The notes under the pieces are model-generated. The model saw only the letters and a list, made by a program, of their open reading frames with translations, searched no databases and was not told where the DNA came from. Positions 9,895 through 31,464 of a stretch of 38,257 nucleotides of DNA are shown one piece after another. Source of the DNA: Thiomargarita sp. (GTDB lineage: Bacteria > Pseudomonadota > Gammaproteobacteria > Beggiatoales > Beggiatoaceae); the NCBI GenBank assembly GCA_020720115.1, contig DYPD01000029.1, positions 1-38,257 of the forward strand, written 5' to 3'. The first letter of the stretch is position 1; every line of letters begins with the position of its first letter. A program made the position numbers and the translations under genes.

Positions 9895-9895
9895 G

Positions 9896-10748: not shown

Positions 10749-10780
10749 AAAGTTATCAATCCATTTTAGAAAAATTGATG

Positions 10781-10821
10781 CACTGGAGTGTTGCTTTGAT
10801 GTTCAACACTCCAACACAGTG
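10781..10821 (-). terminator. Hairpin, possible terminator after the CbbQ-like gene
   Basis: GGAGTGTTG (10785-10793) pairs perfectly with CAACACTCC (10804-10812) across a 10-nt loop. The outer arms CACT/AGTG could extend it past a bulge. On the minus strand a TTTTT run begins only about 6 nt after the stem, so this is a suboptimal intrinsic terminator. Confidence 0.45.
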
Positions 10822-10826
10822 AGCAA

Positions 10827-12143: not shown

Positions 12144-12347
12144 TCAGAGCGCCTTTGGCTTTTCTTGCAAAAAATACTCTGTGCCGCAGTAAGGACATTT
12201 GGCATATCCATGCCCTTCAATGAATAAATACACTCTCGGATGCGAATTCCACAAGCTCATGCCTGGCATGGGGCAGCTCAAGGGCGTTTGCTCAAGGGTG
12301 ATTTCGCAGCGATTTTGTGCGTTAGGGGTCAAGTGATTTTCTGCCAT
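12144..12347 (-). CDS. CHCC-type zinc-finger protein
   Basis: A 67-aa protein of the zf-CHCC family, related to the zinc-binding end of NDUFS6. Metal ligands are C25, H36, C51 and C54 within LSCPMPGMSLWNSHPRVYL and KCPYCGTEYFL. AGGAG (complement of 12354-12358) is 6 nt before the ATG. It follows ilvE by about 50 nt on the same strand, an arrangement I associate with gammaproteobacteria. Its molecular role outside mitochondrial complex I is not established. Confidence 0.9.
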   Translation of the reverse strand: MAENHLTPNAQNRCEITLEQTPLSCPMPGMSLWNSHPRVYLFIEGHGYAKCPYCGTEYFLQEKPKAL

Positions 12348-12398
12348 GTCAATCTCCTGAGAACAAATTCAAGTATTTTTAAGGGGCTTAAGTGCGTG

Positions 12399-13322: not shown

Positions 13323-13524
13323 TGCAGCTTCTCCTCGTAAAATGAACCAGTTACACGATGCTGTTACAACGCTGTCACGCTGCCAGGCAGGTTTTAGTCA
13401 GTGCCCTGCACCTTTAATAAACCTGATTGCGTGAAGCAACGCGAGCATTAAAGCTTTTTATTGTAGCGGGAGTGCTGGCGATTAGATAGAAAAATATAGA
13501 GTTTTGGCAACCTCACCACTTGGC

Positions 13525-13552
13525 TTGACTGTTACTGGCGGACGCTTAAACT
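13525..13552 (+). promoter_or_regulatory. Possible sigma70 promoter for the PerM-like permease
   Basis: TTGACT (13525-13530) and TAAACT (13547-13552) are spaced 16 nt apart, about 35 nt before the ATG at 13587. Confidence 0.45.
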
Positions 13553-13586
13553 ATCCCCTCCCTTTTTTCGCACAGGTTTTCTTGCC

Positions 13587-15986: not shown

Positions 15987-16093
15987 GTAGTGAGCAAAGC
16001 GGAACATTTTCTCTATCTGCGGTATGATTACAACTGGCGGTAAGAACAAAACGGATAACATACCTTAAAAGAATATTGTCCATACTTTCAAAC

Positions 16094-16118
16094 TTTCCAG
16101 GTTTTAAAAACCTGGAAA
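16094..16118. repeat. Near-perfect inverted repeat upstream of the antitoxin
   Basis: TTTCCAGGTTTT pairs with AAAACCTGGAAA across a single A, and Ts follow. It could terminate DUF4350 transcription or act as an operator for the TA pair. Its CCAGGTTT...AAACCTGG design resembles the hairpin at 17763-17795, suggesting a dispersed hairpin family. Confidence 0.6.
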
Positions 16119-16147
16119 ATTTTCTCCCGATTGGATGTGGAGCTAAT

Positions 16148-16378
16148 ATGACAATTGAGCAACTTGCAAGCGACGCGCTACAACTTAACTCACATGAACG
16201 TGCAATACTCGCTGAACTCATCTGGGAAAGCCTGGAAGACCCGTATTTTCTTGCTTCCGAACTATCGGACGTTGAATCACTCGCGTTATCGCTACAGCGG
16301 GATAAGGAAATCGAGCAAGGCACTGCAATCCCTTTATCTCATGCTGATTTGATGGGTAGATTACGCCATGAGAATTGA
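16148..16378 (+). CDS. Addiction module antitoxin, CHP02574/Unstab_antitox type
   Basis: A 76-aa acidic protein, MTIEQLASDALQLNSHERA then LAELIWESLED, the pattern of the small family annotated as putative addiction module components. ATG 16148 is chosen because TGGAG (16138-16142) lies 5 nt upstream. A longer frame from 16076 translates the inverted repeat and is unlikely. The last 11 nt overlap the toxin start, the usual TA arrangement. Antitoxins of this class neutralise the cognate RelE/ParE toxin and often repress their own promoter. Confidence 0.9.
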   Translation: MTIEQLASDALQLNSHERAILAELIWESLEDPYFLASELSDVESLALSLQRDKEIEQGTAIPLSHADLMGRLRHEN

Positions 16379-16661
16379 ATATCATCCCGCAATTGAACAA
16401 GAATTGCGGGAGATTATTCACTACTACAACCAATGCTCTCCAGGCTTTGGCGTAGAGTTTTTGCATGAATTTGAACGGCAAATTTTGAAAATGACTGCCA
16501 TGCCGAAGCGTTGGGCGGTTATTGAAGGCGATACACGCCGCTGTTTGATGAGGCGTTTTCCATATGTCGTTTATTTTCGCGTCATCAATGATGAAATATT
16601 GCGGGTAACAGTGATTAAGCATCAGCGCCAACACCCTGACTATGGACAAGGACGGAAATAA
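16368..16661 (+). CDS. RelE/ParE superfamily toxin
   Basis: A 97-aa basic protein, MRIEYHPAIEQELREIIHYY...GFGVEFLHEFERQI...RRCLMRRFPYVVYFRV...VIKHQRQHPDYG, the layout of ParE/RelE plasmid-stabilisation toxins. RelE members cleave mRNA on the ribosome and ParE members poison gyrase; the family alone does not tell which applies. It overlaps the antitoxin by 11 nt and ends 8 nt before moxR. Confidence 0.92.
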   Translation: MRIEYHPAIEQELREIIHYYNQCSPGFGVEFLHEFERQILKMTAMPKRWAVIEGDTRRCLMRRFPYVVYFRVINDEILRVTVIKHQRQHPDYGQGRK

Positions 16662-16669
16662 TTCTCTCT

Positions 16670-17665
16670 ATGCAACCGCAACCTATGCAACTTCCCCCGG
16701 CAAACGAAAAAATCCACAAAGCCATCGAAATAGTACAACGGATGCGCGAAGAAGTTGCGCGTGCCCTGGTTGGGCAAACACAAGTCATTGAAGAAGTGCT
16801 GATAGCTTTGCTGGCAGCGGGGCATGTACTGATTGAAGGCGTGCCAGGGCTGGGCAAAACTTTGTTAGTGCAAGCCTTGGCAAAGGCCTTTGAAGGCGAT
16901 TTTACCCGCATCCAATTCACCCCCGATTTAATGCCCAGCGATGTAACCGGACATGCACTGTACGACATGAAAACCGAGTCTTTTCATATCCGCAAAGGAC
17001 CGGTTTTCACGCATCTGCTGTTGGCTGATGAAATCAACCGTGCACCCGCTAAAAGCCAAGCGGCCTTGTTAGAAGTCATGCAAGAACAACAGGTAACGAT
17101 TGAAGGCAAAGCCTTTGCGGTGGCTGCCCCTTTCATGACACTGGCGACGCAAAACCCGATAGAACAAGAAGGCACTTACCCCTTGCCCGAAGCGCAACTG
17201 GATCGCTTTTTGTTTAAAATTCAGATCGCCTATCCCAGTGAAAGCGAAGAAATCGCGCTGCTCAAGCAGGTCACTTCAGCGAAAAGTGGGGAAAAACTGG
17301 ATGTCAGCCGCGTCAACCCAGTGATCAAGCCAGAAACCGTAGTGCGTTTGCAGCGCATTGCCGCCAGCGTACAAATGGACGAAAAACTCTACGAATATGC
17401 AGTGCGCATCGTAGCAGCAACCCGCGCTTGGGCAGGCATCAGCATGGGCGCAGGACCGCGTGGCAGCATCGCGCTCATCCGCGCCGCGCGTGCCGCTGCG
17501 CTGTTAGCAGGACGGGCTTTTGTATTGCCCGATGACATCAAAGGCATCGCGCTCGCTACCCTGCGCCACCGCATCTCACTGGCACCAGAATTGGAAATCG
17601 AAGGGCAATCAGTAGACTCAGTGCTGCGGGCGCTGTTAGAAAAAATCCCCGCACCTCGACTCTAA
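16670..17665 (+). CDS. MoxR family AAA+ ATPase
   Basis: A 331-aa full-length MoxR ATPase. Walker A GVPGLGKT (residues 57-64), Walker B LLLADEIN (116-123), NRAPAKSQAALLEVMQEQQVTIEG, sensor 1 in LATQNPIEQEGTYPLPEAQLDRF, and C-terminal GPRGSIALIRAARAAALLAGR. MoxR proteins act as chaperone-like partners of DUF58/VWA proteins, usually encoded just downstream. Here a terminator and a convergent operon follow, with no DUF58. The nearest upstream partner is the DUF4350 gene beyond the TA pair. Confidence 0.95.
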   Translation: MQPQPMQLPPANEKIHKAIEIVQRMREEVARALVGQTQVIEEVLIALLAAGHVLIEGVPGLGKTLLVQALAKAFEGDFTRIQFTPDLMPSDVTGHALYDMKTESFHIRKGPVFTHLLLADEINRAPAKSQAALLEVMQEQQVTIEGKAFAVAAPFMTLATQNPIEQEGTYPLPEAQLDRFLFKIQIAYPSESEEIALLKQVTSAKSGEKLDVSRVNPVIKPETVVRLQRIAASVQMDEKLYEYAVRIVAATRAWAGISMGAGPRGSIALIRAARAAALLAGRAFVLPDDIKGIALATLRHRISLAPELEIEGQSVDSVLRALLEKIPAPRL

Positions 17666-17854: not shown

Positions 17855-18301
17855 CTACATCAAATAAACAATGGCAAGCACCGCCGTAATCAAGCCAACA
17901 ATAGTGCCATGAAAAATACTCAAGGTTTCTGAAAGGCAGACCTTGAACCAACTTCCCACCGGCTTTTCTTGTTTGATTTCCTCTTCGGAAAGCATGATAT
18001 TCATTGAGAAATCAATTTGATCCTCGCTTTTTTTGGATACATGGCTATACAAGCGACGAAACAACCTTTCCTGATGTAAAAAATAACCGTCCAATGTCCA
18101 AAACGCCAATGCTGGAAAGTAGGCTAATCCGACTAATAGGATTTTTGTCGGCTGCGTCGCCTGTGTGGTTGCCAACGCGAACAGCGCGGAAATAATTACC
18201 ACGCTCCACCCTTTCAGCGCAAACGAATTGCCCGCCATGCGGTTAATTACGCCTTGAATCATTTGCAAATGGGCGATTTTGAGTTTTGCATCCATGTTCA
18301 T
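17855..18301 (-). CDS. Small polytopic membrane protein, last gene of the TIR-STAND operon
   Basis: 148 aa. The amphipathic start (HLQMIQGVINRMAGNSFALKGW) leads into two closely spaced helices (about residues 30-75), then a cytoplasmic segment with LDGYFLHQERLFRRLYSHV, and a C-terminal helix (about 125-147). I recognise the MIQGVINRMA...FALKGW...LDGYFLxQERLFRxLY pattern as a widespread uncharacterised family, function unknown. It begins 8 nt after the STAND gene stop, so it is surely co-transcribed. In that setting a membrane effector or membrane anchor is a reasonable inference, not shown. Confidence 0.75.
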   Translation of the reverse strand: MNMDAKLKIAHLQMIQGVINRMAGNSFALKGWSVVIISALFALATTQATQPTKILLVGLAYFPALAFWTLDGYFLHQERLFRRLYSHVSKKSEDQIDFSMNIMLSEEEIKQEKPVGSWFKVCLSETLSIFHGTIVGLITAVLAIVYLM

Positions 18302-18309: not shown

Positions 18310-21300
18310 TTAAAATTCGTACAACGCCAACGCGCCGCGTTTATTCAGTGGCACGGCTAAAATACAGTTTTCCGTGCCCAATGCGCAATGAAAATCAAAG
18401 CTGCGCAGTGGTAAATCGTCACCATTAGACTCTAGCAATTGCGGACGCGGCGCGGAGGGTAGTTCCAGGCTGAACAATTGCCGAGCGCGTTCCACCTCCC
18501 AAAAACGTACCGTCGCATCCGCGCCAGCAGTAATCAAATGTCCGCTGGGGGCGAATTTCGCTTGTAAGATAGCTTCAGTGTGACCGGGCAAGGTTTGCGC
18601 TTGCTCGCTTAAGCCGTGTTTGCTGACAGTAAACAGGCTAACGGTTTGGGTATTGCCCACTGCCACTGCATAGCGCCCATCTGGACTTAAGGCGGCAGAC
18701 CACAGACTGTTTTTGTCTAAGGCGCGTGACGCGCCGATTTTGTTTAATTTGCCGTTGCTGAAAGCGTAATAATGCAACTGAGAACAGTCGGCAACCAGCA
18801 GGCGTTGTCCAGTACGGTCAAACGATAGGGCAACGATTTGTGCATTGACGGTATCTGCACTGTATTGGCTGTAGTCCTGTGTCGTCAACACCGCAAGTCC
18901 GCCTTCTTCATTCCCTAAAATCAACCATTTGCCATCTGGTGAGAATGTCAGCTTGCTTATTACGCCAAATTCGGCGATCTGATCCGCCTGGATATTTTCT
19001 GCTTGCCCCAGTTGCCCCGCTTGCCAGGACCAGCGTTTCAGCTTTTTATCATAACCCGCCGAAAACAGAGATTGATTATCCGGGCTAAAAACTAACGCAC
19101 TTTCGCTAATGCGACCATCATGTCCCTTGACAGGTGCGGATAAATCACCCGCTTTACGGTCATAAACCTGTAATTTGCCCGTTGCCGAACCCAGCACCAC
19201 ATACCGCCCGTCTGCCGAAATTGCCGTAGCGGTGTTGTTTAGCTTGGCGAATGAGGGATCATCTTCCATTTTTTGATGATTGGACAATGTCATCTTCCAA
19301 CAGTGTAATGTGCGGTCATTGCTTACCGAACACACCTGCTCACTGCCAGCAACCGCCGCCAATGCGCGAACCCGTCCGCTATGTCCTTCAAACACGCGCA
19401 ACGTGCGCCCGCTGTCTACATCCCACAAGCGCAAGGCAAAATCATCGCCGCTGGATACCAGGCGTGTATCCTTATCAATAAATACCAAGCCATTCACCAT
19501 GCTGTCGCCGTATTTTTTCAACTCGCGGGTTGGGGTTAATGTTTGCGTATCCCACAAGATAATCTTGCCATCCGCGCCACCGCTGGCAAGCAGTTTAGTA
19601 TTTTTGCTTAGTGCTAGGCGCTCGACGCTGTGGGTATGACCGGTCAGTGTTTGTTTTTCTGTGAGCATCCCTTTCGCCGCCCAGTCAAATACGACGACAC
19701 GGTTATCGCGGAATGCCGTATATACTTGTTTATCTGTGACAACCAGCGCATTGATCGCAGAAGAATTTTCGTACAATACCTGTTCTACACCCGTTGCCAA
19801 CTCACGCACATAGATTCTGCCGCCCGCAGTCGCGTACAGAATCCTCGTGTTATCAGCAGTTAAAGCCAGCGCATGAATGTCGTTCGCTGTGTTTTCATTA
19901 TACAAATCTTGTTTATCTTCAAGCCCTCCAACCCACCAAGACTTTAGTGGTTGCGGTTGCACAAAGCCATTGAATTGCCACTGAATCAATTGCCCATCAT
20001 TGCCTGCACTGAAAAAATAGTTTCCTGTGGGATGGAACAACAGCGCATTGATGTTATGAAAATGTCCACTGTTAATTGACCGGTGCTGTTCAGTATGGCG
20101 TAAATCCACCAGATACAAATGCGGCTGCTCTTCATCTTGTTTTTCACTTCCCGCAAGCGCGTACTGTCCAGCGGGCGAGATCACCAGTGCGCTTAAAGGC
20201 TCAATTTTGGGGTATTTTTGCTTGTCCAAAACCAGCGTGGATTTGCTCTCTCGTGTGGTTAAACTGCTGAGGGTTATTTTGGTTTGTAATAAATGATTTG
20301 AATAAATGTCGTGCGCTTGAATTAAAAAATTCTCTTTTTCTGAAGCAAGGCTTAACTTGTCTTGTGCATCTGAGAAACGCCCAACAGATTCCAAAGTAAT
20401 CGCTTCAGATAAATGCAAGTCAAACTGATAGCGCCGATCTAACATCCCTTTCCAAACAACACCGAGTATCACAATGAGTAGAAGCGCTGCGGCTGCCTGC
20501 AAAGAACGTTTTATGCAGTATTGTCTGTTTTGTATCGCCTGGCTTGCGCGTAAGAAAGCCTGAATATCGGTTAAAACATTTTCGTCATCTGCCACATACC
20601 GACTCAGCCATACCCGCTTCGGCTGAAGTTCCGCAACCCGCTGGCTTGCTGCCGCTAATTTACCCCCTGTCCAGAAGGTCTGTTTACCCTCAGTTTTCCA
20701 GCGCAACGCATCTCTAACCCGCTGGCTTGCTGCCGCTAATTTACCCCCTGTCCAGAAGGTCTGTTTACCCTCAGTTTTCCAGCGCAACGCATCTCTATAT
20801 AAATCATGCAACAGTGCGCCATCTTCAGCATCCTGCCCCGCCCATTGGCGCAAGCGCGGCCAGTACATAATCAAGGTTTCGTGGCTAACATCCAGCATCG
20901 TATCTGGTTCTAGCGCAAGTTCTTTTATTTTATCCGTCATAGTGACGCGGTGCGTAGGCGGGGTAAGAATATGGTTTGCTGGGTGGCGGTAGATGTGGAG
21001 TAATTGGCTTAACTCAGCGTGCAGATTGGCATAATCTTCATCGTCATCGCTAAATAACGCGCAGACATCGGCAAACCTGACCACCCGCCTGACCAAGCGT
21101 TTATTGACGTTGTCATATTCAACTAACGCAGCAAAAATTTTAGCCAATTTTTGTTGGTTTTCAGGTGTTAAGGTATAAAAAAGTTTTTCCAGCGTATGCA
21201 CTAAGGCGGCTTGTAAGGGATTGTTGGTTAAGTCATGTTGTTTGTCGATCTCACCTAAATAGACTTGTAAATCCGCTTGCTGTGCAGGCAATAGGCGCGG

Positions 21301-22377
21301 CGCAATCTGGACGGCGGACAATTGCGTAATGGCTTGATAATCTTGTAATTGGATTTCAATAGAGGGGGGGAGTGGTGGTATTTTCTCAGCATTTTTTAGG
21401 GCTTTAACCCTAAAAATGCCACCCGCTTTTAATTCTTCAGTGCGATCTTCCGCCTTAAGCCAACTGCGGTAGAGGGCGTGTTGCAATAGGGGCAAGCGGT
21501 CGGGAATGTAGTAGGGTTTTTCATCAAGTGTGGGCAATTCTTCCATCGCATTTAATAACTGCCTCACCAAATCCTCTTCCATTCTACAATCATAGTTTTG
21601 TTTTTTTAGTGGTTTACGAATGGCTTGCTCACGTTCCTCCTCGCTCATACGCGGTAAAAGATAAACCGCATCGCCAATAGCCTCCGCCAGTCCTTCCATT
21701 TGGGTACAATGTTCCAAATATTCCGGGCGCATGGTGAGAATGACAGCAACATCGGGGTGCGTTGCAGCAGTCAGCAATAATCTGACAAACTCAATGGCAT
21801 CCCCTTGTAAACTGTCGTCGGTATAGCGGAACAACTCTTCAAATTGATCGATCAGCAGGAGATAACGCGGGGGCAAGCGTTTAGTCTCAGTCTCTGAGCT
21901 TGACGGGTCTTTATCCTCTGTCTGGTTTTGAAGTGGCGGTGAATGAAGCTGTTCAAGTAAATCCTGGAAACTATAAGAACCTTGCCTTAAATCCCCCTCC
22001 AATAATTCAATCAGCATGTCAGGGCTGTCTGTCTGCACATACAAGCTCTCTTGGTAGGCAGTATAAAAACCGCTTTGCGAGTTTTCTAACAAGCCCTTGG
22101 CAAGCTCGTAATAAGGTGCCGACCCTGGACGGCAGTCAGCAATATGCCAAGCATGAACGCTATCTGTTTCCAATTGGGGTAATAAACCGGCTCTGACTAC
22201 TGAGGATTTGCCACACCCAGATACCCCAAGTACCGCAAGCAAGTGTATGTCTGTTGCAAAACAGTCGATCAATTTTTGCTTTAACAGCCCAATCTGATCA
22301 TCCCGCCCACAAAGCAAACTGGCTTCTTGTTTTGTGAAAGGTCTTAAGCCAACATAAGGATAGCGATCTGCCGTCAT
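18310..22377 (-). CDS. STAND-type P-loop NTPase with C-terminal WD40 propeller
   Basis: 1355 aa. The N-terminal PYVGLRPFTKQEASLLCGRDDQI is the signature before nSTAND1-type NTPases. Walker A GVSGCGKS is at 51-58 and Walker B YLLLIDQFEE at about 172-181, followed by MRPEYLEHC and a helical winged-helix-like arm with RLPLLQHALYR and DVSHETLIMYWPRLRQW. A transmembrane helix near residues 625-645 (ALLLIVILGVVWKGM) precedes WD40 repeats filling roughly residues 690-1340 (GGADGKIILWD, SSGDDFALRLWD, TAGADATVRFWE). Such proteins act as signal-dependent switches. The start overlaps the TIR stop by 4 nt (ATGA). An exact 27-residue tandem duplication occurs near residue 530-580. Confidence 0.93.
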   Translation of the reverse strand: MTADRYPYVGLRPFTKQEASLLCGRDDQIGLLKQKLIDCFATDIHLLAVLGVSGCGKSSVVRAGLLPQLETDSVHAWHIADCRPGSAPYYELAKGLLENSQSGFYTAYQESLYVQTDSPDMLIELLEGDLRQGSYSFQDLLEQLHSPPLQNQTEDKDPSSSETETKRLPPRYLLLIDQFEELFRYTDDSLQGDAIEFVRLLLTAATHPDVAVILTMRPEYLEHCTQMEGLAEAIGDAVYLLPRMSEEEREQAIRKPLKKQNYDCRMEEDLVRQLLNAMEELPTLDEKPYYIPDRLPLLQHALYRSWLKAEDRTEELKAGGIFRVKALKNAEKIPPLPPSIEIQLQDYQAITQLSAVQIAPRLLPAQQADLQVYLGEIDKQHDLTNNPLQAALVHTLEKLFYTLTPENQQKLAKIFAALVEYDNVNKRLVRRVVRFADVCALFSDDDEDYANLHAELSQLLHIYRHPANHILTPPTHRVTMTDKIKELALEPDTMLDVSHETLIMYWPRLRQWAGQDAEDGALLHDLYRDALRWKTEGKQTFWTGGKLAAASQRVRDALRWKTEGKQTFWTGGKLAAASQRVAELQPKRVWLSRYVADDENVLTDIQAFLRASQAIQNRQYCIKRSLQAAAALLLIVILGVVWKGMLDRRYQFDLHLSEAITLESVGRFSDAQDKLSLASEKENFLIQAHDIYSNHLLQTKITLSSLTTRESKSTLVLDKQKYPKIEPLSALVISPAGQYALAGSEKQDEEQPHLYLVDLRHTEQHRSINSGHFHNINALLFHPTGNYFFSAGNDGQLIQWQFNGFVQPQPLKSWWVGGLEDKQDLYNENTANDIHALALTADNTRILYATAGGRIYVRELATGVEQVLYENSSAINALVVTDKQVYTAFRDNRVVVFDWAAKGMLTEKQTLTGHTHSVERLALSKNTKLLASGGADGKIILWDTQTLTPTRELKKYGDSMVNGLVFIDKDTRLVSSGDDFALRLWDVDSGRTLRVFEGHSGRVRALAAVAGSEQVCSVSNDRTLHCWKMTLSNHQKMEDDPSFAKLNNTATAISADGRYVVLGSATGKLQVYDRKAGDLSAPVKGHDGRISESALVFSPDNQSLFSAGYDKKLKRWSWQAGQLGQAENIQADQIAEFGVISKLTFSPDGKWLILGNEEGGLAVLTTQDYSQYSADTVNAQIVALSFDRTGQRLLVADCSQLHYYAFSNGKLNKIGASRALDKNSLWSAALSPDGRYAVAVGNTQTVSLFTVSKHGLSEQAQTLPGHTEAILQAKFAPSGHLITAGADATVRFWEVERARQLFSLELPSAPRPQLLESNGDDLPLRSFDFHCALGTENCILAVPLNKRGALALYEF
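20635..20797 (-). repeat. Perfect 81-bp tandem duplication inside the STAND NTPase gene
   Basis: Bases 20635-20715 are repeated exactly at 20716-20796. The unit is 27 codons, so the frame is kept and the protein contains RDALRWKTEGKQTFWTGG plus nine following residues twice in succession. Exact identity points to a recent slippage or unequal-recombination event, or to an assembly artefact. Confidence 0.9.
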
Positions 22378-23360
22378 GATTTTTCGTCCATTGCCTGAAC
22401 CTTGTGAATCACTGTACTGATAAATTGTTCTATTCTGCCACCCTTAGCACCTCGTAGTAGTTTTTTATATTTTTCATCAGAGATGTTTTTAATTTCCCTG
22501 AGTGGTATCTCATGCCGCCACACGAGCACGGGTATGTTGTTATTCACAGCAACACGGTATTGTTCATAAGCATCATTGGTTATACAACTTTCTTTATCAA
22601 GCAAAAGAACAAAGAGTTTACAACCTGCGCTAAAAAACTCGAACCTAGCTTGCGCGTCTACTTGTGGTAAATCAAGCGTCAAATTATCCAGCGGTGCGAA
22701 GCTAATCTTGTAACCTTTTAGTTCATTAGCAATCGCTTGGCGTTGCGTGGCGAGTGAACTTGGAACAATTGAAAGATACACTGTGTTTCGGCGAGGTTTA
22801 CCTAGTTGTTCTTGGCAAGTTTTGACCAGCTCCACAATTGTCGCTGCAATATCGTCTATTTTTTTATAATAAATGATATTCTTATTCTTCAAGGCTTGTG
22901 TTCCAAACCGAGAATTTCCATCAAAAAATCTTCCCACCTTTAACTGTAGTAAACACTCAAGTATATTTTGAATGTCTTGTTGCCTTCCTTTAGAAATATA
23001 TTCTGAAATTGAGTATTGATATTTTTCAATAGCAATTAATAGGATTCTTTTGCAACCAGCATGCGCTATTCTTGCCTGTACTTCTTCTATAGTCCAGTTA
23101 CTATTAAAATACGCGGGAGAAACAAAAGCAACAAATATGCAAGAGGTTTTTGCTGATTCTAATATGGATTGTTGTACGGGGCCATCTTGAAGTGATTCCG
23201 TATCAAAAAATACCAGTAGCTCTCTCCCTAAACTACTACCACTACGTTGTTTAATATAAGTTACAGTTTTCGTAACCCATGTCTCAGCACGTTTAGAATA
23301 GGGGGCATTATCAAATCTTGCATAACTAAAAAAAACTTCTGTTTCTTTATTTTCATTCAC
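22374..23360 (-). CDS. TIR-domain protein, probable NADase effector or adaptor
   Basis: 328 aa. The N-terminal half is a TIR domain: VFFSYARFDN (about residues 9-18), LVFFDTESLQDG, and FVSPAYFNSNWTIEEV, where E93 falls at the catalytic glutamate position of NAD-cleaving TIR domains. A second Rossmann-like region (about 190-300: VYLSIVPSSLATQRQAI, KLFVLLLDKE, NIPVLVWRHEIP) resembles DUF4062-like or degenerate TIR folds. GTG 23360 is chosen: GGAGGAG (complement of 23367-23373) is 6 nt upstream, and the GTG overlaps the preceding gene's stop as GTGA. A longer frame to 23399 would translate that ribosome binding site. It is coupled by ATGA to the STAND gene. Confidence 0.9.
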   Translation of the reverse strand: MNENKETEVFFSYARFDNAPYSKRAETWVTKTVTYIKQRSGSSLGRELLVFFDTESLQDGPVQQSILESAKTSCIFVAFVSPAYFNSNWTIEEVQARIAHAGCKRILLIAIEKYQYSISEYISKGRQQDIQNILECLLQLKVGRFFDGNSRFGTQALKNKNIIYYKKIDDIAATIVELVKTCQEQLGKPRRNTVYLSIVPSSLATQRQAIANELKGYKISFAPLDNLTLDLPQVDAQARFEFFSAGCKLFVLLLDKESCITNDAYEQYRVAVNNNIPVLVWRHEIPLREIKNISDEKYKKLLRGAKGGRIEQFISTVIHKVQAMDEKS

Positions 23361-23647
23361 AACACACTCCTCCTCCCCAAAAGCATTTGAATGATACAAG
23401 ACGAAGATTGTTTGGTTTGTTCTGTGGCTGTACCTGTACCTGTAGCAGTCCCAGTGCTTTTAGCCTCATCAACTTCTTCTGGCGATTTGCATTTGGGGTT
23501 ACTAGATGTGCATGGTACTGGGGTTTCTCCACCATTGGCAGCAACAAACCGCGCCCACCCACGATCAGCCCCTATCCCCAGCAAGAACAAAAAACTTACC
23601 AGCATCACAGCCAAATAGACTAGCTGCCGAACAAACTTTCTTTTCAT
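23357..23647 (-). CDS. Small membrane-anchored or exported protein leading the TIR operon
   Basis: 96 aa. Basic start MKRKFVRQ and one hydrophobic segment (about residues 9-26, LVYLAVMLVSFLFLLGIG), then a polar tail with cysteines at 46, 53 and 84 and a low-complexity TGTATGTGTATEQ stretch. AGGAG lies just upstream of the ATG. Its stop overlaps the TIR GTG start by 4 nt. I do not recognise the family. As the first, translationally coupled gene of the operon it may be a sensor, anchor or secreted ligand. Confidence 0.68.
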   Translation of the reverse strand: MKRKFVRQLVYLAVMLVSFLFLLGIGADRGWARFVAANGGETPVPCTSSNPKCKSPEEVDEAKSTGTATGTGTATEQTKQSSSCIIQMLLGRRSVL

Positions 23648-23789: not shown

Positions 23790-26700
23790 ATGAGTAAGAA
23801 TGCCGATCCGAGAGATGAACTCTATGAGTTGTATGCGTTAAACCATTTGCATCGTCGTCCTGATTTGTCGTTGTCAAAATTGGAAAATGCCGACGAAAAT
23901 GCGCTGTGTGAGGCATTGCCTTTCCTGTTTAAGCCTAATCGTTTACTGGCGTTACACGCAGGTGATGATAAAAAAGGTGGACGCCCGACAGACGATCCCT
24001 ATAACCGTTGGCTGATTAAGTTGGACTTACCCAAAGCCTTACCTGTGATCGCTGTCGTCAATAGGCAGTGGCAGCTATCACTATGGCATTACAAAAATGA
24101 TGCAAACTCAGGCGGACTTTTTCCACTCAGTGTAACCTCAGAGAACTTGAAAAACAACTCAAACGCCCCACCGGACACGAACATCATCTTGCTGCCAAAG
24201 AAGGACACAAACGCAGAATACCAGCGTGACACCTTTGAACTGATACGCTTTGAAAAAGCGTGCAGTTCAAAACACATCTATTTAAGCCTGTTTACACAAT
24301 ACTCCGAGCATTTTTTACGCCTCGATTCCAGTAATTTTGAGTCAGACTCTCCTCAAATTTCCTATTTTTTGACACGGATTGATTTTCCAACGGAGCAAAC
24401 GGATCAAGAGAAAATACTTTCTAGGCAAATTGGCGGTTGGGACGACAGCACAAGTTTCTTTTTTAGTTGGGGTGAGGAACAGCCGCTTTGTCAAGAGGCA
24501 CCGAAAGGCATGAGTGGGAGTAAACGGCTTGATCTTTCCGATGAATTAGCAGATGCGAAGCGGCGACTATGGGCGGCGGCAGAACGAGACGACGCACTAG
24601 CCCTAGGCGGCAATTTTGACGCGATTTTGTTTCGTGTGCGTCCGTCGGCGGAATTTGTTCAATTTCCCATGCCCGGCTTAGTCAGGTGTGCGGCTGTTGT
24701 TGCTGCGCCAGCACAGGAAGAATTTGGAACACCCATAAATCAAAAGGATATTGGACCGCTGATTCTGGCAGGTTGTGATGATTACCGCTTGTATGTCCTG
24801 AATAAGGAAGGAAAGGAGTTGGGGAATATCTTTCTGGATGGAATGATTGAGAGTATTCTGATACTTCATGATGACGCTAATTGTGTAGATTTGGCAATTA
24901 TCGTGCGGGCAAAAGGCGTTTATTGCGCCCGTTTGTTTTATGATCAATTAAAATTTCAAACAACTGTGGTTGAAAATGGACACCCAGTGTTGCATAAACG
25001 CTTTATTGAGCGTCTCATCAAGGTGTTAAACACACAATCTCAGTGGCTTGAAACACAATTAAAGCATTCGGAACTTGAGCAGCAAATCCTTGGTTTACTG
25101 GCACTGCTGCATCAGCCTTCCGTAGAAAATCTAAACATATTTAAAAGTTTCTTACCTAGGTTAAATAGCAACGCCGCCGAATGGTTAATATATTTACTGT
25201 ATCGCTGGTGGTGTGAGGTGCAAAAGAAGCCTTTATCCGCATTAGAGAAAATGCCTTTGGAACGGCGTATTTTCAAACTTTTCCAATGCATGGTTGATGA
25301 GCCAATGCAGTGCCGCCTCCAGGCTGCGCTATATCGGTATGCAGGATGGTTACAAACCATTGATTCAAAACTTGCGCCCTCCAGTGAACTTGCACGATTC
25401 ACTGAACTAGCTAGAACGTTAGAGCGTAATCATCTGCCTAAACAAGAATTTACTGCCACTGCTGCATTGAATAATTTAGCGAATTTCCGCCACTTGATAC
25501 TGAGTTTAGTTTATAGCGACGCATGGCGTAATCAGCGCCCTCATCCAGAGAAAATACCCCAGTCAGGACGGATAAGCAGTATTTTAATGTTACCATCAAA
25601 AGAGAATGAACATGCGCAGCACACAGTAGTAGTTAGCGTGCGTAGCAAGCAGAAACAGCAGAAACTTAAGACGTTTTGCTGTATTCCTTTTGGCGGAAAG
25701 TTACCAGAATCGCTTGATTGGTCACCCGATATTGACGCAGCAAGAATATGTGCAACGATCCCTGATCCTCTTATCCATCAAATTCTAATTGTCACGAATG
25801 ACCGTATTGGTTGGGCAACTTATAATCAAGCAATTATTTGGCATACAGAACTGCCACCCTTCAAATCCGTCTGGACTGCCGCATTCTCGCATGACGGCGA
25901 TTATCTAGTAGTTGGCGGTGAATGGCATTTCAGTCTTGAATCTCCAGCCCCTCTTTATGTCCTGCAACGCAAAATCATTGAAAAGCATACTACTGAAAAA
26001 GGTGCTAAACACCGGCAGCATTTAGATGAATGGAAGCCGTTGCCAACCAGAGGACTTTTACCACCACAGAATCGTCAGCGTGTACGCATTACCACCTTGG
26101 CATGGGCAAAGGCGGAAGGTGAACAACGTGATTTATGGGCAACTGCGGGCGGGCGTGGTGAAATTATCTATTGGACTGATGCGCAAGCTGTGTTAGGCGC
26201 ACAAACCGAACGTCCTGCTCAAATTGCTGGTATTGTTGGCACGGCGCAAACGGCTTTAGTGATTTTGCATTTGGCTCGCAAAGGAGAATATCTAGCTATA
26301 TGCGGCGGCGAAGATGGCGTGGTACGCGCTTTTGACAAACATGGACGCTTGTGCTGGCTCAACGTGCTGCCAGGCAGTATCTGTGGCATAACGGTGCGAT
26401 CACAAAAGCCACTTGATCCGCATGATCCTTACGCACCGCTTGCAGTTTTGTGTGACGAGGAGCATTTGTTTTTATTTGATGAAAACGGCTTGCAACGCGG
26501 TATCCTGCATTTGCCGCATTGGACGCTTTCTTGTCTGGCGCGTGCCAATATTGCCGGTAAAGCCTATCATCTAATCGGTGATTTAACCGGTAAAGTGTTG
26601 TTGGTGAAGGAGTTGCCTAAAGAACAAAGTGCGCTTGCGCTGTGTAGTGGCAATGCACAAGCTTCTTTTAAGCAATGCTATAACGAATACGCTAAGTCAG

Positions 26701-29666
26701 ATTTTTTGTCAGACTGTTGTGCGTCTGCTTATGCCAGTTCCCATCCGCTACAAGCTGCTTGGGCGGCGCAAGAACTGATAATACGCGGGGAATTTGAACC
26801 GATTTTAGCGTTATTAGAGGCAATTAAAGGTGATTTTGATACTGCAAGCAGAACATTGCGCCCGCTGATTTTTCATGCCTTGGGGAAATCATTTAGCAAA
26901 CCGCCGAGCGGAATATTCCCAAATTTAACACACCTTATTGGATCAGTGCGAGATGGCGTACTAGCCAGTTTTCTTCATGCAACGCCCCATGAGAGTAATG
27001 CCAATAAGAGGTTGGCAAATCATGTTTTCATCATTGCGCGTAATAAAGCATTAAAGGAACAGCGCCCTTTCACCACGCAAGCTCTGCTGGAAATGGTGCG
27101 GATTAGACCAGACATTTATGTGCGCCGCGTTGAAAGTATTTTGATTGAAATCATCAAAAAACCGAATGTGCATCAAAACACAAATTTTCTTGAAGGATTA
27201 TTTGTGGCCTTCTTTTCATCATTGCAATTGAGTGAAGTGGGTATTTTGGCGGCACTGGCTAATATTCCAGAGAAATACCCAAATTTGAATAAACGATTAG
27301 TTACGCCAGACTTCAGAGCAAGATTTATCACTTTATTGGATACTGTGTCTTGGAGCGTCTTTTCTAGCCAAGAAGCGGCTGCTTGGCGTTTTAAGAAGTA
27401 TTTACTGCATGATGGTGGAAAATTTGAGGCAGATGAGTTTGAGGCAAAACTGCTCCATGCGCAAAGCATGTTACAAAGAAACGCAGTGTCCGATGCCAGT
27501 TTGATAAAGCAGTTTTTATCTTTTCTGCCCAACATCACCATGCTGATGCCATCAAATACAACAAACCTACCTTTGCTCTGGCGGTCGTATGCTGATTGGA
27601 CGAATGAGATTCGCCAACTATTCCGCGATAGTCATTTGCTTGATCCGAAAGCTGCGAAAAAAAAATTGCAAGATGTTATTAAAGTATTGGAAGAACCTAA
27701 GCTTGCTGAAAATGAACCGGTTTTATTGAATAACTTTACTCTACTATGGAAAAATTCGTGGCTTAAAGCCTGTCGTGAAAAGTTAAACGAATTGCCGTCT
27801 CAAAGCAAAGCTAATTCCGCCAAACCCGACCAAGTTCTTTCATTTCCAGGCATTATCGCCCACATCAATTCCATGTTGAAAGAAAAAGGATTCAACACCG
27901 GCGTGTTTTATCGCTTGCTGGAAGTTCCCGCACAAAACAGCATCCTGCGAGTGTTAAAACGTTACCCACCTGATTTGTCCAATGCTTTGCAAACCGTGAC
28001 GGTAATTAATGAGAATGAGGAGGATCGTCAAGTCTATTTCAGCCAATATCTTTTCACTGGCGGGCATCCTGAACGCTTATATTGGGAAATACATGAAGAT
28101 CCCAAAATTGATAATGGCAGTTTTTGGTATAAGCACCAATTGGTGCAAGGTGCGCATCTTGAATTACCGTATTTAGAGCCTTTTCATGACGGCTACCGTG
28201 CGGGTGGTTTTCTGATATTGGAGGATACAAAGAAGCCTATTGAGAAGGTAAAAGAGCAGGGTATGCTGGCGAAAATGACAAAGCTTTTTTCTTTTCTCCG
28301 TTCGGAGCAAGACATAGAAAGGCTGACTGCTGAAAATGAACAAGCACTTTTGGAACAATTTCATCTATTGAAACTATGTTTTCAGCAACAAGAAACCGAG
28401 TATGAAAACTATCTCAACGAATTTGAACAGTTGCTCACAAATCAGTATAAGGTGGATGAACAATTAGTAAAGCAAGCACAACAAGCCATTGTCGAGATTG
28501 CCATCAAACTCAGTTATGCCGATGGCGCAGTGCTGTGGCAACCGGAACCGAAAGACGAGCGTTTCTTGGAGGCGGTGGCAGCCGCCAGTCCGATAGAGGA
28601 GTATTCAAAACTGTACAAGGAACGTAAGTTATGGCGTAAAGAACAAGATTTTGTATCGGTTAAATGCTGGAAAGAAGGTGTTGCGCAATTTGCACCGAAT
28701 TGGTCAGATAGTCCTGACAAACAGCACTCTTTATCAAAGGAAAACTCGCACACTGCTCATTACCGCTTATTGGCTAAACTCAATTCTCTGGTCAGTTTGC
28801 CAGTTAAGTTTGCTGACAAGGTATTGGCAGTGTTGACGCTACACAGTTATCAAACTTATGCTTTTGATGAGTTATGTTTGAAACGTGTGAACAAGCTGCT
28901 GGAGCGTAGCCACTGGTTTTTACATACTTTGTATTTGCAACAAGAACGCAACCAGGAGCGCCATGCCTGGGAAGGCGCGATGCTGCATGAAATTCGCTCG
29001 GAACTCAATCCATTGAAGCATCGGCTTGATCAGGCAATGCGAATGCCCAAGCCGGAAAAATATTTACGCATTGCCCAGCGCCAAGTGGAAGAGCTGTATC
29101 ATTTGGCAGATAATTTCATGGAAATTAGCGGTCACTCCCATGCGGATTTCAGTGCGGTGATTGATGCGCCGGGGGCTGCGGTGGAAAAATTTTTATGCGA
29201 TTATCAAGATACGATTGAGAAAACCGAGCAAACCTATGTGCTTAATCCTGACGATCACAGGGATACAATCTGGCACACACAGCTACAAGGCAAGCCTGAA
29301 GTTTTCTCCCGCGTAGTGCGCAATCTGTTGCACAATGCGTTTAAGTATGGTGGCGCAGGTGCGGAAATTCACATTGATGCCGATATGCAAGCCTATAAAG
29401 ACGGTTATTATTGGCACTTAAAAATTAGCAATCCAGGGCACATGACCCGCGAAGAAGATGATTTGAAATTCGTCCCGCGTGCCCATCCCACTGACCGCCC
29501 CGAAGGGCATCGTGATGGCGCACACGTTGGCTTGGCGGCGAGCAAGCAGTGCGCGTTAGCTTATCAAGCGCATTTGACCTTGTATAATGACAAGCAAACT
29601 GGAAGGGTGGTTGCCGAATTAGGGTGGCCGCTGGCACAGCAACCTGCAAACAGCGAGGAACAATAG
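23790..29666 (+). CDS. Giant soluble sensor histidine kinase with beta-propeller and GAF domains
   Basis: 1958 aa with no transmembrane helix seen. The N-terminal about 580 residues are unrecognised and probably hold beta-rich sensor repeats. Propeller-like repeats occupy about residues 590-950 (SVWTAAFSHDGDYLVVGG, LWATAGGRGEIIYW, YLAICGGEDGVVRAFD). A helical region follows, then a GAF-like domain (about 1555-1710), the phosphoacceptor segment GAMLHEIRSELNPLKHRLDQ with H1733, and a HATPase_c domain with N-box RNLLHNAFKYG (N1849) and G-box GAHVGLAASKQ. The stop overlaps the GTG of the receiver gene (TAGTG), so kinase and receiver are coupled. The signal sensed is unknown. Divergent transcription from the TIR/STAND operon is the main clue to function. 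Confidence 0.88.
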   Translation: MSKNADPRDELYELYALNHLHRRPDLSLSKLENADENALCEALPFLFKPNRLLALHAGDDKKGGRPTDDPYNRWLIKLDLPKALPVIAVVNRQWQLSLWHYKNDANSGGLFPLSVTSENLKNNSNAPPDTNIILLPKKDTNAEYQRDTFELIRFEKACSSKHIYLSLFTQYSEHFLRLDSSNFESDSPQISYFLTRIDFPTEQTDQEKILSRQIGGWDDSTSFFFSWGEEQPLCQEAPKGMSGSKRLDLSDELADAKRRLWAAAERDDALALGGNFDAILFRVRPSAEFVQFPMPGLVRCAAVVAAPAQEEFGTPINQKDIGPLILAGCDDYRLYVLNKEGKELGNIFLDGMIESILILHDDANCVDLAIIVRAKGVYCARLFYDQLKFQTTVVENGHPVLHKRFIERLIKVLNTQSQWLETQLKHSELEQQILGLLALLHQPSVENLNIFKSFLPRLNSNAAEWLIYLLYRWWCEVQKKPLSALEKMPLERRIFKLFQCMVDEPMQCRLQAALYRYAGWLQTIDSKLAPSSELARFTELARTLERNHLPKQEFTATAALNNLANFRHLILSLVYSDAWRNQRPHPEKIPQSGRISSILMLPSKENEHAQHTVVVSVRSKQKQQKLKTFCCIPFGGKLPESLDWSPDIDAARICATIPDPLIHQILIVTNDRIGWATYNQAIIWHTELPPFKSVWTAAFSHDGDYLVVGGEWHFSLESPAPLYVLQRKIIEKHTTEKGAKHRQHLDEWKPLPTRGLLPPQNRQRVRITTLAWAKAEGEQRDLWATAGGRGEIIYWTDAQAVLGAQTERPAQIAGIVGTAQTALVILHLARKGEYLAICGGEDGVVRAFDKHGRLCWLNVLPGSICGITVRSQKPLDPHDPYAPLAVLCDEEHLFLFDENGLQRGILHLPHWTLSCLARANIAGKAYHLIGDLTGKVLLVKELPKEQSALALCSGNAQASFKQCYNEYAKSDFLSDCCASAYASSHPLQAAWAAQELIIRGEFEPILALLEAIKGDFDTASRTLRPLIFHALGKSFSKPPSGIFPNLTHLIGSVRDGVLASFLHATPHESNANKRLANHVFIIARNKALKEQRPFTTQALLEMVRIRPDIYVRRVESILIEIIKKPNVHQNTNFLEGLFVAFFSSLQLSEVGILAALANIPEKYPNLNKRLVTPDFRARFITLLDTVSWSVFSSQEAAAWRFKKYLLHDGGKFEADEFEAKLLHAQSMLQRNAVSDASLIKQFLSFLPNITMLMPSNTTNLPLLWRSYADWTNEIRQLFRDSHLLDPKAAKKKLQDVIKVLEEPKLAENEPVLLNNFTLLWKNSWLKACREKLNELPSQSKANSAKPDQVLSFPGIIAHINSMLKEKGFNTGVFYRLLEVPAQNSILRVLKRYPPDLSNALQTVTVINENEEDRQVYFSQYLFTGGHPERLYWEIHEDPKIDNGSFWYKHQLVQGAHLELPYLEPFHDGYRAGGFLILEDTKKPIEKVKEQGMLAKMTKLFSFLRSEQDIERLTAENEQALLEQFHLLKLCFQQQETEYENYLNEFEQLLTNQYKVDEQLVKQAQQAIVEIAIKLSYADGAVLWQPEPKDERFLEAVAAASPIEEYSKLYKERKLWRKEQDFVSVKCWKEGVAQFAPNWSDSPDKQHSLSKENSHTAHYRLLAKLNSLVSLPVKFADKVLAVLTLHSYQTYAFDELCLKRVNKLLERSHWFLHTLYLQQERNQERHAWEGAMLHEIRSELNPLKHRLDQAMRMPKPEKYLRIAQRQVEELYHLADNFMEISGHSHADFSAVIDAPGAAVEKFLCDYQDTIEKTEQTYVLNPDDHRDTIWHTQLQGKPEVFSRVVRNLLHNAFKYGGAGAEIHIDADMQAYKDGYYWHLKISNPGHMTREEDDLKFVPRAHPTDRPEGHRDGAHVGLAASKQCALAYQAHLTLYNDKQTGRVVAELGWPLAQQPANSEEQ

Positions 29667-30172
29667 TGAATATTTCTTCCAACATTCAGATAAATTCAAA
29701 AGAAATCAAGCGGATTTTACAAGACAAGCAGATTCTATGGGTAGATGACCGCTGGGAACAAATCGAGCCATTTATTGATGAGTTGGTGGATAATGGTTAT
29801 ATCGCCGAGGAAAACATGCAGGTGGCGTTTGATTTAAGCAGTGCATTCAAGTACCTGGGAAATAAAGATCATCGGGTTGATCTGGTGCTGATTGATTTGA
29901 ATATTTCTTCAATGCCAGAAGAACTGCAAAAGTTGCGGAAAAAATATTTTCAGACTGAAATCCTCAATCATGGGCAGTCTTTGGGAGTCTGGCTATCACA
30001 ACATCGTCCGCACATAAAATATGCCTATTTGAGTGCGCTGGTGGGGCATTTTGATAGACAGGCACATCCTTCACAAGCCGATGCGCTGGTTATTGGCAAA
30101 AATTTCAATATCAAAGATTTTCCTGGCTGGTTAGCGGGGGTTTTGTCGTCTCCGTCAGACGTTAAGACTTGA
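29666..30172 (+). CDS. Stand-alone receiver-domain protein
   Basis: 168 aa from GTG 29666, which follows GAGGAA and overlaps the kinase stop by 1 nt; the frame stays open further upstream but that would lie inside the kinase. The receiver landmarks are all present: acidic pair D27/D28 (QILWVDDRW), phosphoacceptor D77 (VLIDLNI), S123 (YLSALV) and K145 (VIGKNF). No output domain follows, so it is CheY/Spo0F-like. A longer than usual stretch separates D77 from S123, which makes it an atypical receiver. It is the obvious phosphotransfer partner of the upstream kinase. Confidence 0.85.
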   Translation: MNISSNIQINSKEIKRILQDKQILWVDDRWEQIEPFIDELVDNGYIAEENMQVAFDLSSAFKYLGNKDHRVDLVLIDLNISSMPEELQKLRKKYFQTEILNHGQSLGVWLSQHRPHIKYAYLSALVGHFDRQAHPSQADALVIGKNFNIKDFPGWLAGVLSSPSDVKT

Positions 30173-30312: not shown

Positions 30313-31464
30313 ATGATGAGCAAATCTGCATTTCAAACCGAAAGCTGGCGTGCCGTACAGCAGCAATTCATTGATAATTTTCTAAAATTGCAAAAAGAAG
30401 CCTGGCACACCCTGACCCCACAAGAACACTGGCAAGGCGCGTTTGATGAGGTTTGGCAAACTTTGCATAAAGCTGCCGAGTTAAACCCTGGCAATGCTTT
30501 GAGCCAAAACCTATTACAGCAGTTCTTTCAACAAGCATCCCAGTATGTTCAATTACAGGAGGATTTTTTACTTAAAGTACAAAAAGCTGCCTATTTCTCT
30601 GAAGCCCATGATCTGTGGCAAAGCTGGGCGGAGCATTTGCAACGCCAGTTCAATCAAGTCAGCCAAAGCAACTTGCTGGATAATTGGCAAAAGCTGGGTG
30701 AGCAGTTCTTCTTGCAGATGCAAGAGCAGGTTGAAAAACTTCAGGCTTTGCAATTTAAATTACCAGAGGATTGGGCACAGCGACAGGCAGAAAACCAGGC
30801 ACTTTGGCAGTCATATCAAAGAGCGCAACAGGATTATGTGGCGTTTTTCCAGCAGGTTGGACAACAAGCCAGCACCTTGCTACAAGCGCGTTTGCAGGCA
30901 TCAGACGCAAGCGGCGACTGGCGTATGACTTATGATGCTTGGGTGGATGCGGGTGAAGAAGCTTATGCAGCAGCAATTAATACCGAGGCTTATGCAGAAA
31001 TCAATGCACGGGTCATCAATAGTTTGTTGCTGTGGAAGCAAAACAGCCGAGAATTGATGAATGAGTTGCTTAAAGCATTGCATTTGCCTAGCTATAGCGA
31101 CGCGCAGCGTTGGCAAGCTAAAATCTATGCTTTGCAAAAGGAACGTAGTGCCTCGTTAGCAGCGCAACAAGCACAATGGCAGGCGCAATTGCAAGCAGCG
31201 CATACGCAAAATGAACAACTGTCCACAGAGTTGCTGACAATCAAACAAACCAGTGCCGCAGAAATCGGACGTTTGCAAGAAGAATTGGAAAGCAGCAAGC
31301 GCCATTTACAACAAATGGAAACTCAGATAACGCGACTGGATGCAGTGCAAAAGGCGCTGGATGAAGCTCAGGTTCAATTGCAAGCGCATAAAACTAAGGA
31401 AAAAGCTGTGCGTAAACCTGCTTCTACGCGGAATGCTAAAAGCCCACCGGTAAAATCCAGTTAA
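30313..31464 (+). CDS. phaE: Class III PHA synthase subunit PhaE
   Basis: A 383-aa mostly helical, Gln/Trp-rich protein. The central AYAAAINTEAYAEINARVINSLL and LHLPSYSDAQRWQAKIYALQKE match the PhaE region that ends in the conserved LPTRxEVDxLHxRIYELRRE-like segment. A coiled coil (about 285-360) and a basic tail (KEKAVRKPASTRNAKSPP) follow. PhaE forms the active class III polyhydroxyalkanoate synthase with PhaC. No phaC lies within this window, which is unusual since the two are commonly adjacent. AGGAG at 30301-30305 is 7 nt before ATG 30313; a second ATG follows immediately at 30316. A terminator follows. Confidence 0.85.
   Translation: MMSKSAFQTESWRAVQQQFIDNFLKLQKEAWHTLTPQEHWQGAFDEVWQTLHKAAELNPGNALSQNLLQQFFQQASQYVQLQEDFLLKVQKAAYFSEAHDLWQSWAEHLQRQFNQVSQSNLLDNWQKLGEQFFLQMQEQVEKLQALQFKLPEDWAQRQAENQALWQSYQRAQQDYVAFFQQVGQQASTLLQARLQASDASGDWRMTYDAWVDAGEEAYAAAINTEAYAEINARVINSLLLWKQNSRELMNELLKALHLPSYSDAQRWQAKIYALQKERSASLAAQQAQWQAQLQAAHTQNEQLSTELLTIKQTSAAEIGRLQEELESSKRHLQQMETQITRLDAVQKALDEAQVQLQAHKTKEKAVRKPASTRNAKSPPVKSS

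What the first reader, a model, noticed from the sequence alone, without database searches (positions are those of the whole stretch)
23790..29666. 1958-aa soluble histidine kinase with an unassigned 580-residue N-terminus
Very few histidine kinases are this large without membrane helices. The order is an unknown N-terminus, propeller repeats, long helical region, GAF, phosphoacceptor and HATPase. The phosphoacceptor box MLHEIRSELNPL is atypical and the HATPase domain is compact. The unknown N-terminus and the 600-residue middle have no clear assignment.
Basis: partly seen in the sequence, partly recalled or inferred. Interest (0 to 1): 0.7.

Follow-up and report, generated by a model that had tools for sequence, protein, structure and literature searches.

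The report
Giant sensor kinase beside immune genes
A very large soluble sensor kinase and its small partner protein sit head-to-head with genes that look like a bacterial immune (cell-suicide) system, in three related places out of three that could be examined, which suggests that a phosphate relay may control that system; no experiment has shown this yet.

Summary
The 1958-aa ORF at 23790-29666 is real and is a soluble histidine kinase: H1733-E1734 is present in 5 of 5 family members that reach it (window included), and a family profile matches solved kinases (best E 1e-9). The 'unassigned' N-terminus is a probable divergent second propeller (weak evidence); 960-1340 is predicted helical. AlphaFold models were poor. 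The kinase stop overlaps the start of a divergent single-domain receiver that keeps its phosphoacceptor residues; such a receiver follows 4 of 4 kinase genes whose 3' end is assembled (one copy decayed).

The new point is the neighbourhood. In 3 of 3 kinase loci whose upstream side is assembled, a divergent operon encodes an effector-like protein (TIR, TIR, metallophosphoesterase) and an nSTAND1-WD40 NTPase. Two further relatives carry a STAND/AAA-type ATPase in place of the kinase. I read this as a rare candidate conflict (anti-phage-like) system in which a propeller sensor kinase and receiver signal to an NLR-like executioner. Parts and linkage are shown; signalling, defence and direction of control are inferred. 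It resembles Detocs in principle, but no receiver-effector protein was found among the neighbours scanned.

The parts
23790..29666 (+). Sensor histidine kinase, 1958 aa (P0001), soluble
23790..24989 (+). Residues 1-400: beta-rich N-terminal region, at least one propeller-like blade at residues 323-378 (24756-24923)
   Evidence: secondary structure of a low-confidence model; hhalign blade match; weak PDB propeller profile hits
24987..25544 (+). Residues 400-585: predicted helical stretch between the two beta regions
   Evidence: low confidence
25557..26669 (+). Residues 590-960: beta-propeller region (GGEDGVVRAFD at 839)
26667..27809 (+). Residues 960-1340: helical solenoid-like region; conserved P986-L987...AAW motif
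27822..28394 (+). Residues 1345-1535: unassigned; second GAF tested and not supported
28470..28871 (+). Residues 1561-1694: GAF domain
   Evidence: below cut-off; above cut-off in relative G504 (29.6 vs 28.6 bits)
28986..28988 (+). Phosphoacceptor His codon, H1733 (HEIRSEL)
   Evidence: H and E in 5 of 5 family members that reach it, window included
29295..29609 (+). HATPase_c, residues 1836-1940; N-box NLLHNAFKYG 1845, altered G1 box SNPGHMT 1880, DGAHVGL 1909
29666..30172 (+). Single-domain receiver, 168 aa from GTG overlapping the kinase stop by one base; acidic pair D27-D28, D77, S123, K145
   Evidence: Pfam Response_reg only E 0.13
23357..23647 (-). Small 96-aa ORF with hydrophobic N-terminus (19-residue mean 2.53), first gene of the divergent operon; its stop overlaps the TIR start (GTGA)
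22374..23360 (-). TIR protein, 328 aa from GTG behind a GGAGGAGGA stretch; second half unassigned
   Evidence: TIR_2 E 3.7e-8, above cut-off
18310..22377 (-). nSTAND1-(one TM)-WD40 NTPase, 1355 aa; ATGA overlap with TIR gene
17855..18301 (-). Small membrane protein, 148 aa, PADLOC candidate PDC-M50A
   Evidence: (E 6.1e-44)

Best explanation
The kinase and the receiver are the sensing and relay arm of a candidate conflict (anti-phage-like) system whose executioner is the divergent operon (small hydrophobic peptide, TIR, nSTAND1-WD40, small membrane protein). Proposed path: the propellers and solenoid bind an intracellular signal; H1733 is autophosphorylated; the phosphate passes to D77 of the single-domain receiver; the receiver, in which no output domain was found, changes by contact the state of the nSTAND1-WD40/TIR machine, whose TIR would then deplete NAD+. 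Shown here: the parts, their catalytic residues, the tight coupling of kinase and receiver, and the conserved linkage. Inferred: ligand, phosphotransfer, contact with nSTAND1, direction (activation or restraint), TIR activity, and defence itself.
For: Kinase core and receiver residues. The receiver follows the kinase in 4 of 4 kinase genes whose 3' end is assembled: window, G010:C90, G001:C50, and G001:C180, the last with two stops. A TIR/TIR/metallophosphoesterase + nSTAND1-WD40 operon lies divergently in 3 of 3 kinase loci whose 5' side is assembled: window, G001:C232, G010:C90. The three linked nSTAND1 NTPases score higher with each other (206, 198, 152 bits) than with any of 13 unlinked copies from four genomes (at most 121), and fall in one group with a single kinase-free copy, G000:C52. 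Expected by random placement within 5 kb: 1.2, 0.7 and 0.5% per genome (counts). In two further relatives the same sensor is fused to a STAND/AAA-type ATPase. The gene before the kinase-free sibling operon at G000:C52 is an HPt phosphotransfer protein, PF01627 E 3.4e-10. G010 has an integrase beside the block.
Against: Only three loci, two of them in one genus. Immune genes cluster, so random placement is too lenient a null. The nSTAND1 sibling at G000:C52 has no such kinase. The three kinase-linked nSTAND1s are not a clean clade (one side of a branch in only 47% of bootstraps; 72 of 500 label shuffles as low). G504, a kinase-type genome, shows no receiver of this family at E up to 0.01. The G1 box of the ATPase domain is altered and HATPase_c is below the Pfam cut-off. 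No PADLOC model matches the kinase. No expression or phage data.
Confidence: 0.5

Rival explanations
1. An ordinary cytosolic two-component pair that merely shares a mobile island or hotspot with an independent TIR-nSTAND1-WD40 system.
For: The nSTAND1 module also exists without the kinase (G000:C52). Integrase or transposase genes lie near the G010 and G001 loci. Flanking genes differ between the window, G001 and G010.
Against: Same divergent arrangement in 3 of 3 loci whose kinases are 26-34% identical to the window's, with effectors exchanged, and linked nSTAND1s closest to each other.
Confidence: 0.28
2. A Detocs-like defence in which kinase and receiver act alone, the receiver being a phosphate buffer, with an effector outside the locus.
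For: Same pairing of a histidine kinase with a stand-alone phosphate-absorbing protein as reported for DtcA and DtcB (passages of PMC11728103).
Against: No receiver-effector fusion (DtcC) among the neighbours scanned. No DtcA/B/C sequence was obtained for comparison.
Confidence: 0.12
3. The kinase has lost catalysis and serves as a scaffold or ATP-gated switch.
For: HATPase below the Pfam cut-off; G1 box NPG[HQ]MT instead of the usual DxGxG (recalled) in 4 of 4; no Pro at H+5.
Against: His, Glu and N-box conserved; receiver Asp conserved in 3 of 3 intact copies.
Confidence: 0.1

Closest known systems
Detocs (defensive two-component system: DtcA kinase, DtcB buffer, DtcC response regulator)
   Same: Histidine kinase paired with a stand-alone receiver in an apparent immune setting.
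   Different: No receiver-effector protein found among neighbours scanned; effectors are TIR or phosphoesterase with a separate nSTAND1-WD40, in a divergent operon; propeller sensor. Detocs sequences not compared.
nSTAND1-centred conflict systems with TIR or calcineurin-type effectors (eLife 2021, PMC8195603)
   Same: The divergent operon (TIR or metallophosphoesterase + nSTAND1) has parts that paper lists.
   Different: Linked here to a histidine kinase and receiver; the passages I read mention receivers only as independent of histidine kinases.
MoxR-vWA beta-propeller ternary systems (eLife 2020, PMC7159879)
   Same: Propellers and NTPases in a conflict setting; the MoxR gene at 16670-17665 also passes the bpMoxR cut-off (40.4 vs 27 bits).
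   Different: No vWA match in the kinase or in the neighbours scanned; that MoxR fits generic AAA_3 far better (213 bits) and lies near DUF4350. The paper reports no histidine kinase among vWA-associated effectors.
Soluble GAF histidine kinases
   Same: GAF-DHp-HATPase core.
   Different: About 1550 extra N-terminal residues of propeller and solenoid; altered G1 box.

Membership tests
Histidine kinase | DHp phosphoacceptor His followed by Glu | tested here: met
   H1733-E1734; 5 of 5 members that reach it, aligned to PDB kinases
Histidine kinase | DHp+CA core by profile | tested here: met
   PDB profile E 1e-9 over positions 779-986; but Pfam HATPase_c below cut-off and no HisKA match
Histidine kinase | N, G1 and G2 ATP boxes | tested here: inconclusive
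   N-box present; G1 is NPG[HQ]MT and G2 DGAH[VI]GL in 4 of 4
Two-component receiver | Acidic pair, phosphoacceptor Asp, Ser/Thr, Lys | tested here: met
   Present in 3 of 3 intact copies, the Lys not in the same alignment column in all; Pfam E only 0.13
Detocs | Third gene: response regulator that carries the effector (DtcC) | tested here: not met
   No receiver match in the neighbours scanned
Detocs | Homology to DtcA/DtcB | not testable with these tools
   No Detocs sequence found: 4 of 449 E. coli genomes without an intact ssb-yjcB match were viewed
nSTAND1 conflict system (neighbour operon) | nSTAND1 NTPase with effector-type neighbour | tested here: met
   PF20703 E 2.4e-69, TIR_2 above cut-off
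nSTAND1 conflict system (neighbour operon) | Effector-associated adaptor (EAD/Death-like) domains | tested here: inconclusive
   None seen in Pfam scans; the nSTAND1 table shows only 25 of 51 families
MoxR-vWA beta-propeller ternary system | vWA-propeller protein | tested here: not met
   No vWA match at E up to 1 in the kinase
Anti-phage defence system | Protection against phage | not testable with these tools
   needs experiment

The most novel reading that the evidence does not exclude
A phosphorelay-gated NLR-like immune system: one propeller sensor family that drives STAND-type executioners either by direct fusion to an ATPase (G005, G574) or through a histidine kinase and single-domain receiver acting on a separate nSTAND1-WD40/TIR machine (window, G001, G010).
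Probability: 0.4. Interest if true: 0.8.

Novelty: new variant of a known kind. Interest (0 to 1): 0.55.

Why it matters
If true, it would join two signalling logics that are usually separate in bacteria, histidine-to-aspartate phosphorelay and NLR-like NTPases, and would offer a way to tune or reset a suicide response, since phosphorylation is reversible. Exchange of the C-terminal output (kinase or ATPase) on one sensor family gives a direct genetic test of what the sensor talks to. The listings of the paper searches named in the report showed no paper describing this combination.

Tried and rejected
AlphaFold models of residues 1-975 and 960-1958 (4 and 3 sequences) had mean pLDDT 46 and 44; I used only their secondary structure and made no fold search. 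A second GAF at 1345-1535 was tested by hhalign and not supported. Viral contigs, plasmids and phages gave no relative. MoxR at 16670-17665 as part of a ternary system: judged unlikely, although it passes the bpMoxR cut-off, because AAA_3 fits far better, a DUF4350 gene lies near it and no vWA was seen. An empty site in G001 next to the PhaE gene: by its ORFs that gene has other neighbours, so no clean empty site. A DUF4062-like second half of the TIR protein: no DUF4062 match at E up to 1; left open. A conserved small peptide gene before the effector: convincing only in the window; in G001 and G010 the open frames are weakly hydrophobic (best 19-residue means 1.39 and 1.65 against 2.53), and in G001 the first start codon is a GTG at codon 18. 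A Detocs sequence for comparison was sought in E. coli at ssb-yjcB; the four sites viewed held Avs4 (two), a restriction-type island, and one hypothetical gene. The three class-level hits (G051, G171, G378) and the hits outside G000, G001, G005 and G010 match only the kinase core; they were dropped as generic kinases. In one search I left out six fragmentary nSTAND1 loci (G000:C142, C179, C64, second C63 piece; G001:C151; G005:C127), so 13 unlinked and 3 linked loci of 22 were compared.

Full report
Observation. The ORF 23790-29666 is present as described, 1958 aa. It has no membrane segment by hydropathy. Pfam gives only sub-threshold WD40, GAF and HATPase_c matches and no HisKA. NCBIfam lists 17 models at E up to 0.1, 16 of them kinases over the C-terminus, best E 1.7e-8, all far below their cut-offs. 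A profile of three family members matches 16 PDB sequences at E up to 0.01, all histidine kinases, best E 1e-9; some cover only the ATPase part. In single-sequence comparison H1733 pairs with the H-box His of AdeS and of 7z8n. In a five-row alignment (window, G010, G001:C50, G001:C180, G504) His and Glu of the H-box are present in 5 of 5; the N-box, NPG[HQ]MT and DGAH[VI]GL are in the 4 rows that reach them.

N-terminus and middle. The first 400 residues are predicted beta-rich, 400-585 helical, 590-960 beta, 960-1340 helical, from models of low confidence (mean pLDDT 46 and 44; the helical stretch up to about residue 1030 is better, mostly 63-82). Residues 323-378 align with 834-894 of the same family profile (hhalign pairwise E 6.6e-4, probability 27%). 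The family profiles hit designed and natural propellers in both regions; these hits are mostly sums of short repeats, individually weak. In seven members WD40 is the commonest weak Pfam match, 4 of 7 at E up to 1. I therefore a propeller and 1-400 a probable second, divergent propeller. Residues 1345-1535 remain unassigned.

Family. Long matches were found in 4 of 42 genomes of the order (G000, G001, G010, G005; the same four), in no new genome of 369 drawn from the class, and in two more of 398 drawn from the phylum (G504, G574). Searches of 150 relatives of each of those two added none; the rows listed overlap strongly. One scan of the collection of 84,980 species genomes with two peptide patterns returned three loci, on contigs of the same lengths as G001:C50, G010:C90 and G005:C1, titled Thiotrichales bacterium BB31, Thiotrichales bacterium BB2 and a MAG labelled Dichelobacter nodosus, isolate SulCav_GS09. 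Viral contigs, plasmids and phages: none. The family is rare, or rarely sampled.

Two output types. Kinase type: window, G010:C90 (2026 aa), G001:C50 (C-terminal 1441 aa, contig starts inside the gene), G001:C180 (272-aa fragment, 56% identical to the window), G504:C168 (1792 aa, ends just after the H-box, 32 bases before the contig end), and G001:C232 (N-terminal piece that runs into an IS110-like transposase frame, match below the Pfam cut-off). C232 and C50 could be two ends of one interrupted gene; this is not resolved. ATPase type: G574:C375 (2418 aa) and G005:C1 (split by masked gaps) share a C-terminal region (E 4e-112) with an AAA_16/STAND-like ATPase (AAA_16 33.9 bits in G005, above the cut-off of 32.6; 30.8 in G574, below), followed by two genes of 412 and 577 aa in G574 with counterparts in G005 (E 1e-9 and 4e-64).

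Receiver. The gene after the kinase starts at GTG 29666, overlapping the kinase stop by one base; in G010 the overlap is 4 bases. The alignment of three receivers keeps an acidic pair (DD, ED, EE), D77, S/T123 and a Lys at or near 145. Pfam barely sees it (E 0.13); the only PDB hit at E up to 1 is a response regulator at E 0.13. Searching six family genomes with the receiver profile found it beside each kinase 3' end that is assembled (4 of 4; C180's copy has two stops), one weak extra match in G010 (E 0.0025), and none in G005, G574 or G504. In 369 class genomes only the window's copy was found. The missing receiver in G504 counts against an obligatory pair, or is an assembly gap.

Neighbourhood. 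Divergent from the kinase lies an operon of four tightly spaced genes: a 96-aa ORF with a hydrophobic N-terminus, TIR (GTGA overlap), nSTAND1-TM-WD40 (ATGA overlap), and a 148-aa membrane protein matching PADLOC candidate PDC-M50A. G001:C232: TIR and nSTAND1-WD40. G010:C90: metallophosphoesterase, 125-aa ORF, nSTAND1-WD40, SLATT_2 membrane effector. That is 3 of 3 kinase loci with an assembled 5' side; C50, C180 and G504 cannot be judged. In the ATPase-type loci I saw no separate nSTAND1: none on contig C1 of G005, none among the four neighbours scanned in G574. G574 has a patatin gene divergent from the sensor; the neighbours of the G005 sensor were seen as ORFs only, not scanned.

Is the linkage chance? 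nSTAND1 matches: 12 stretches (9 loci by my count) in G000, 7 in G001, 4 in G010, 2 in G005. Random placement within 5 kb gives 1.2%, 0.7% and 0.5%; product 3.7e-7, or 5.6e-5 counting the genus once. Clustering of immune genes makes this too lenient. The three linked nSTAND1 proteins score higher with each other than with any of 13 unlinked ones and group with one unlinked copy, G000:C52 (support 97/99), but the linked three are one side of a branch in only 47% of bootstrap trees, and 72 of 500 label shuffles need as few changes. C52 has a metallophosphoesterase-TIR fusion (its TIR match is below the cut-off), a 203-aa ORF, nSTAND1-WD40 and a protein with two hydrophobic segments, without this kinase; about 100 bases upstream on the same strand is an HPt protein. 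I recognised no kinase among the ORFs of 150 aa or more beyond it, by reading alone. One case, so only a lead, but it again puts a phosphorelay part beside this nSTAND1 lineage.

Mechanism. I propose sensor, kinase, receiver, then nSTAND1/TIR by protein contact; no DNA-binding or other output domain was found in the receiver. Whether phosphorylation fires or restrains the executioner is open. NAD+ depletion is established knowledge for many TIR domains; here only the domain match was tested.

Literature. In PMC7159879 (passages) receivers but no histidine kinases were found among vWA-associated effectors. In PMC8195603 (passages) receivers are described as occurring independently of histidine kinases, and nSTAND1 is named in systems with TIR, calcineurin and other effectors. 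Detocs is described in passages of PMC11728103, PMC11249213 and PMC10952713; the original paper was not among the 8 listed and is recalled only. PMC12839542 (passages) mentions Schlafen RNases fused to a minimal histidine kinase and wHTH near BREX, another case of a kinase module in defence. PMC10907252 (passages) lists nSTAND1, TIR and metallophosphoesterase domains at retroelement loci of Thiohalocapsa. PMC13174449 (abstract and first part of Results) makes DUF4062 a TIR-like NADase. The listings of searches (6 of 7; 15 of 924; none; 3; 1) showed no paper with this combination; searches were for Detocs terms. The library lacks most subscription papers.

Verdict. An unusual but genuine histidine kinase. 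Alone it is a new large architecture; with its neighbours it is a good candidate for a new variant of an immune-like system with a phosphorelay. Interest 0.55, because three loci support the linkage and nothing functional has been tested.

Noticed in passing
L063 (G000:C52) 5855-14506, - strand: Kinase-free sibling system: HPt protein, metallophosphoesterase-TIR fusion, 203-aa ORF, nSTAND1-WD40, protein with two hydrophobic segments.
   Followed up: partly
L065 (G574:C375) 4527-17636: Sensor fused to a STAND/AAA-type ATPase (2418 aa), two further genes shared with G005, and a divergent patatin gene; a second system type.
   Followed up: partly
window 23357-23647 -: Small hydrophobic 96-aa ORF with a ribosome-site-like GGAG, coupled to the TIR start; weaker frames lie at the same place in L038 (1549-1809 +) and L033 (9393-9773 -).
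   Followed up: partly
L021 2592-3635 (G010:C90): Tyrosine integrase about 470 bases downstream of the receiver gene, so the block may be mobile.
   Followed up: no
L024 10575-11393 and 11696-12217 (G001:C180), receiver at contig 9962-10417: A decayed second copy of kinase C-terminus (56% identical to the window) and receiver with two stops, next to a transposase.
   Followed up: no
window 14748-17665 and 30313-31464: DUF4350 and MoxR genes on one side and a PHA synthase PhaE-like gene on the other; the block seems set between unrelated genes, but no empty site was found.
   Followed up: partly
L033 3713-4324 (G010:C90), - strand: SLATT_2 pore-type effector gene directly after the nSTAND1-WD40 gene, E 1e-27.
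   Followed up: no
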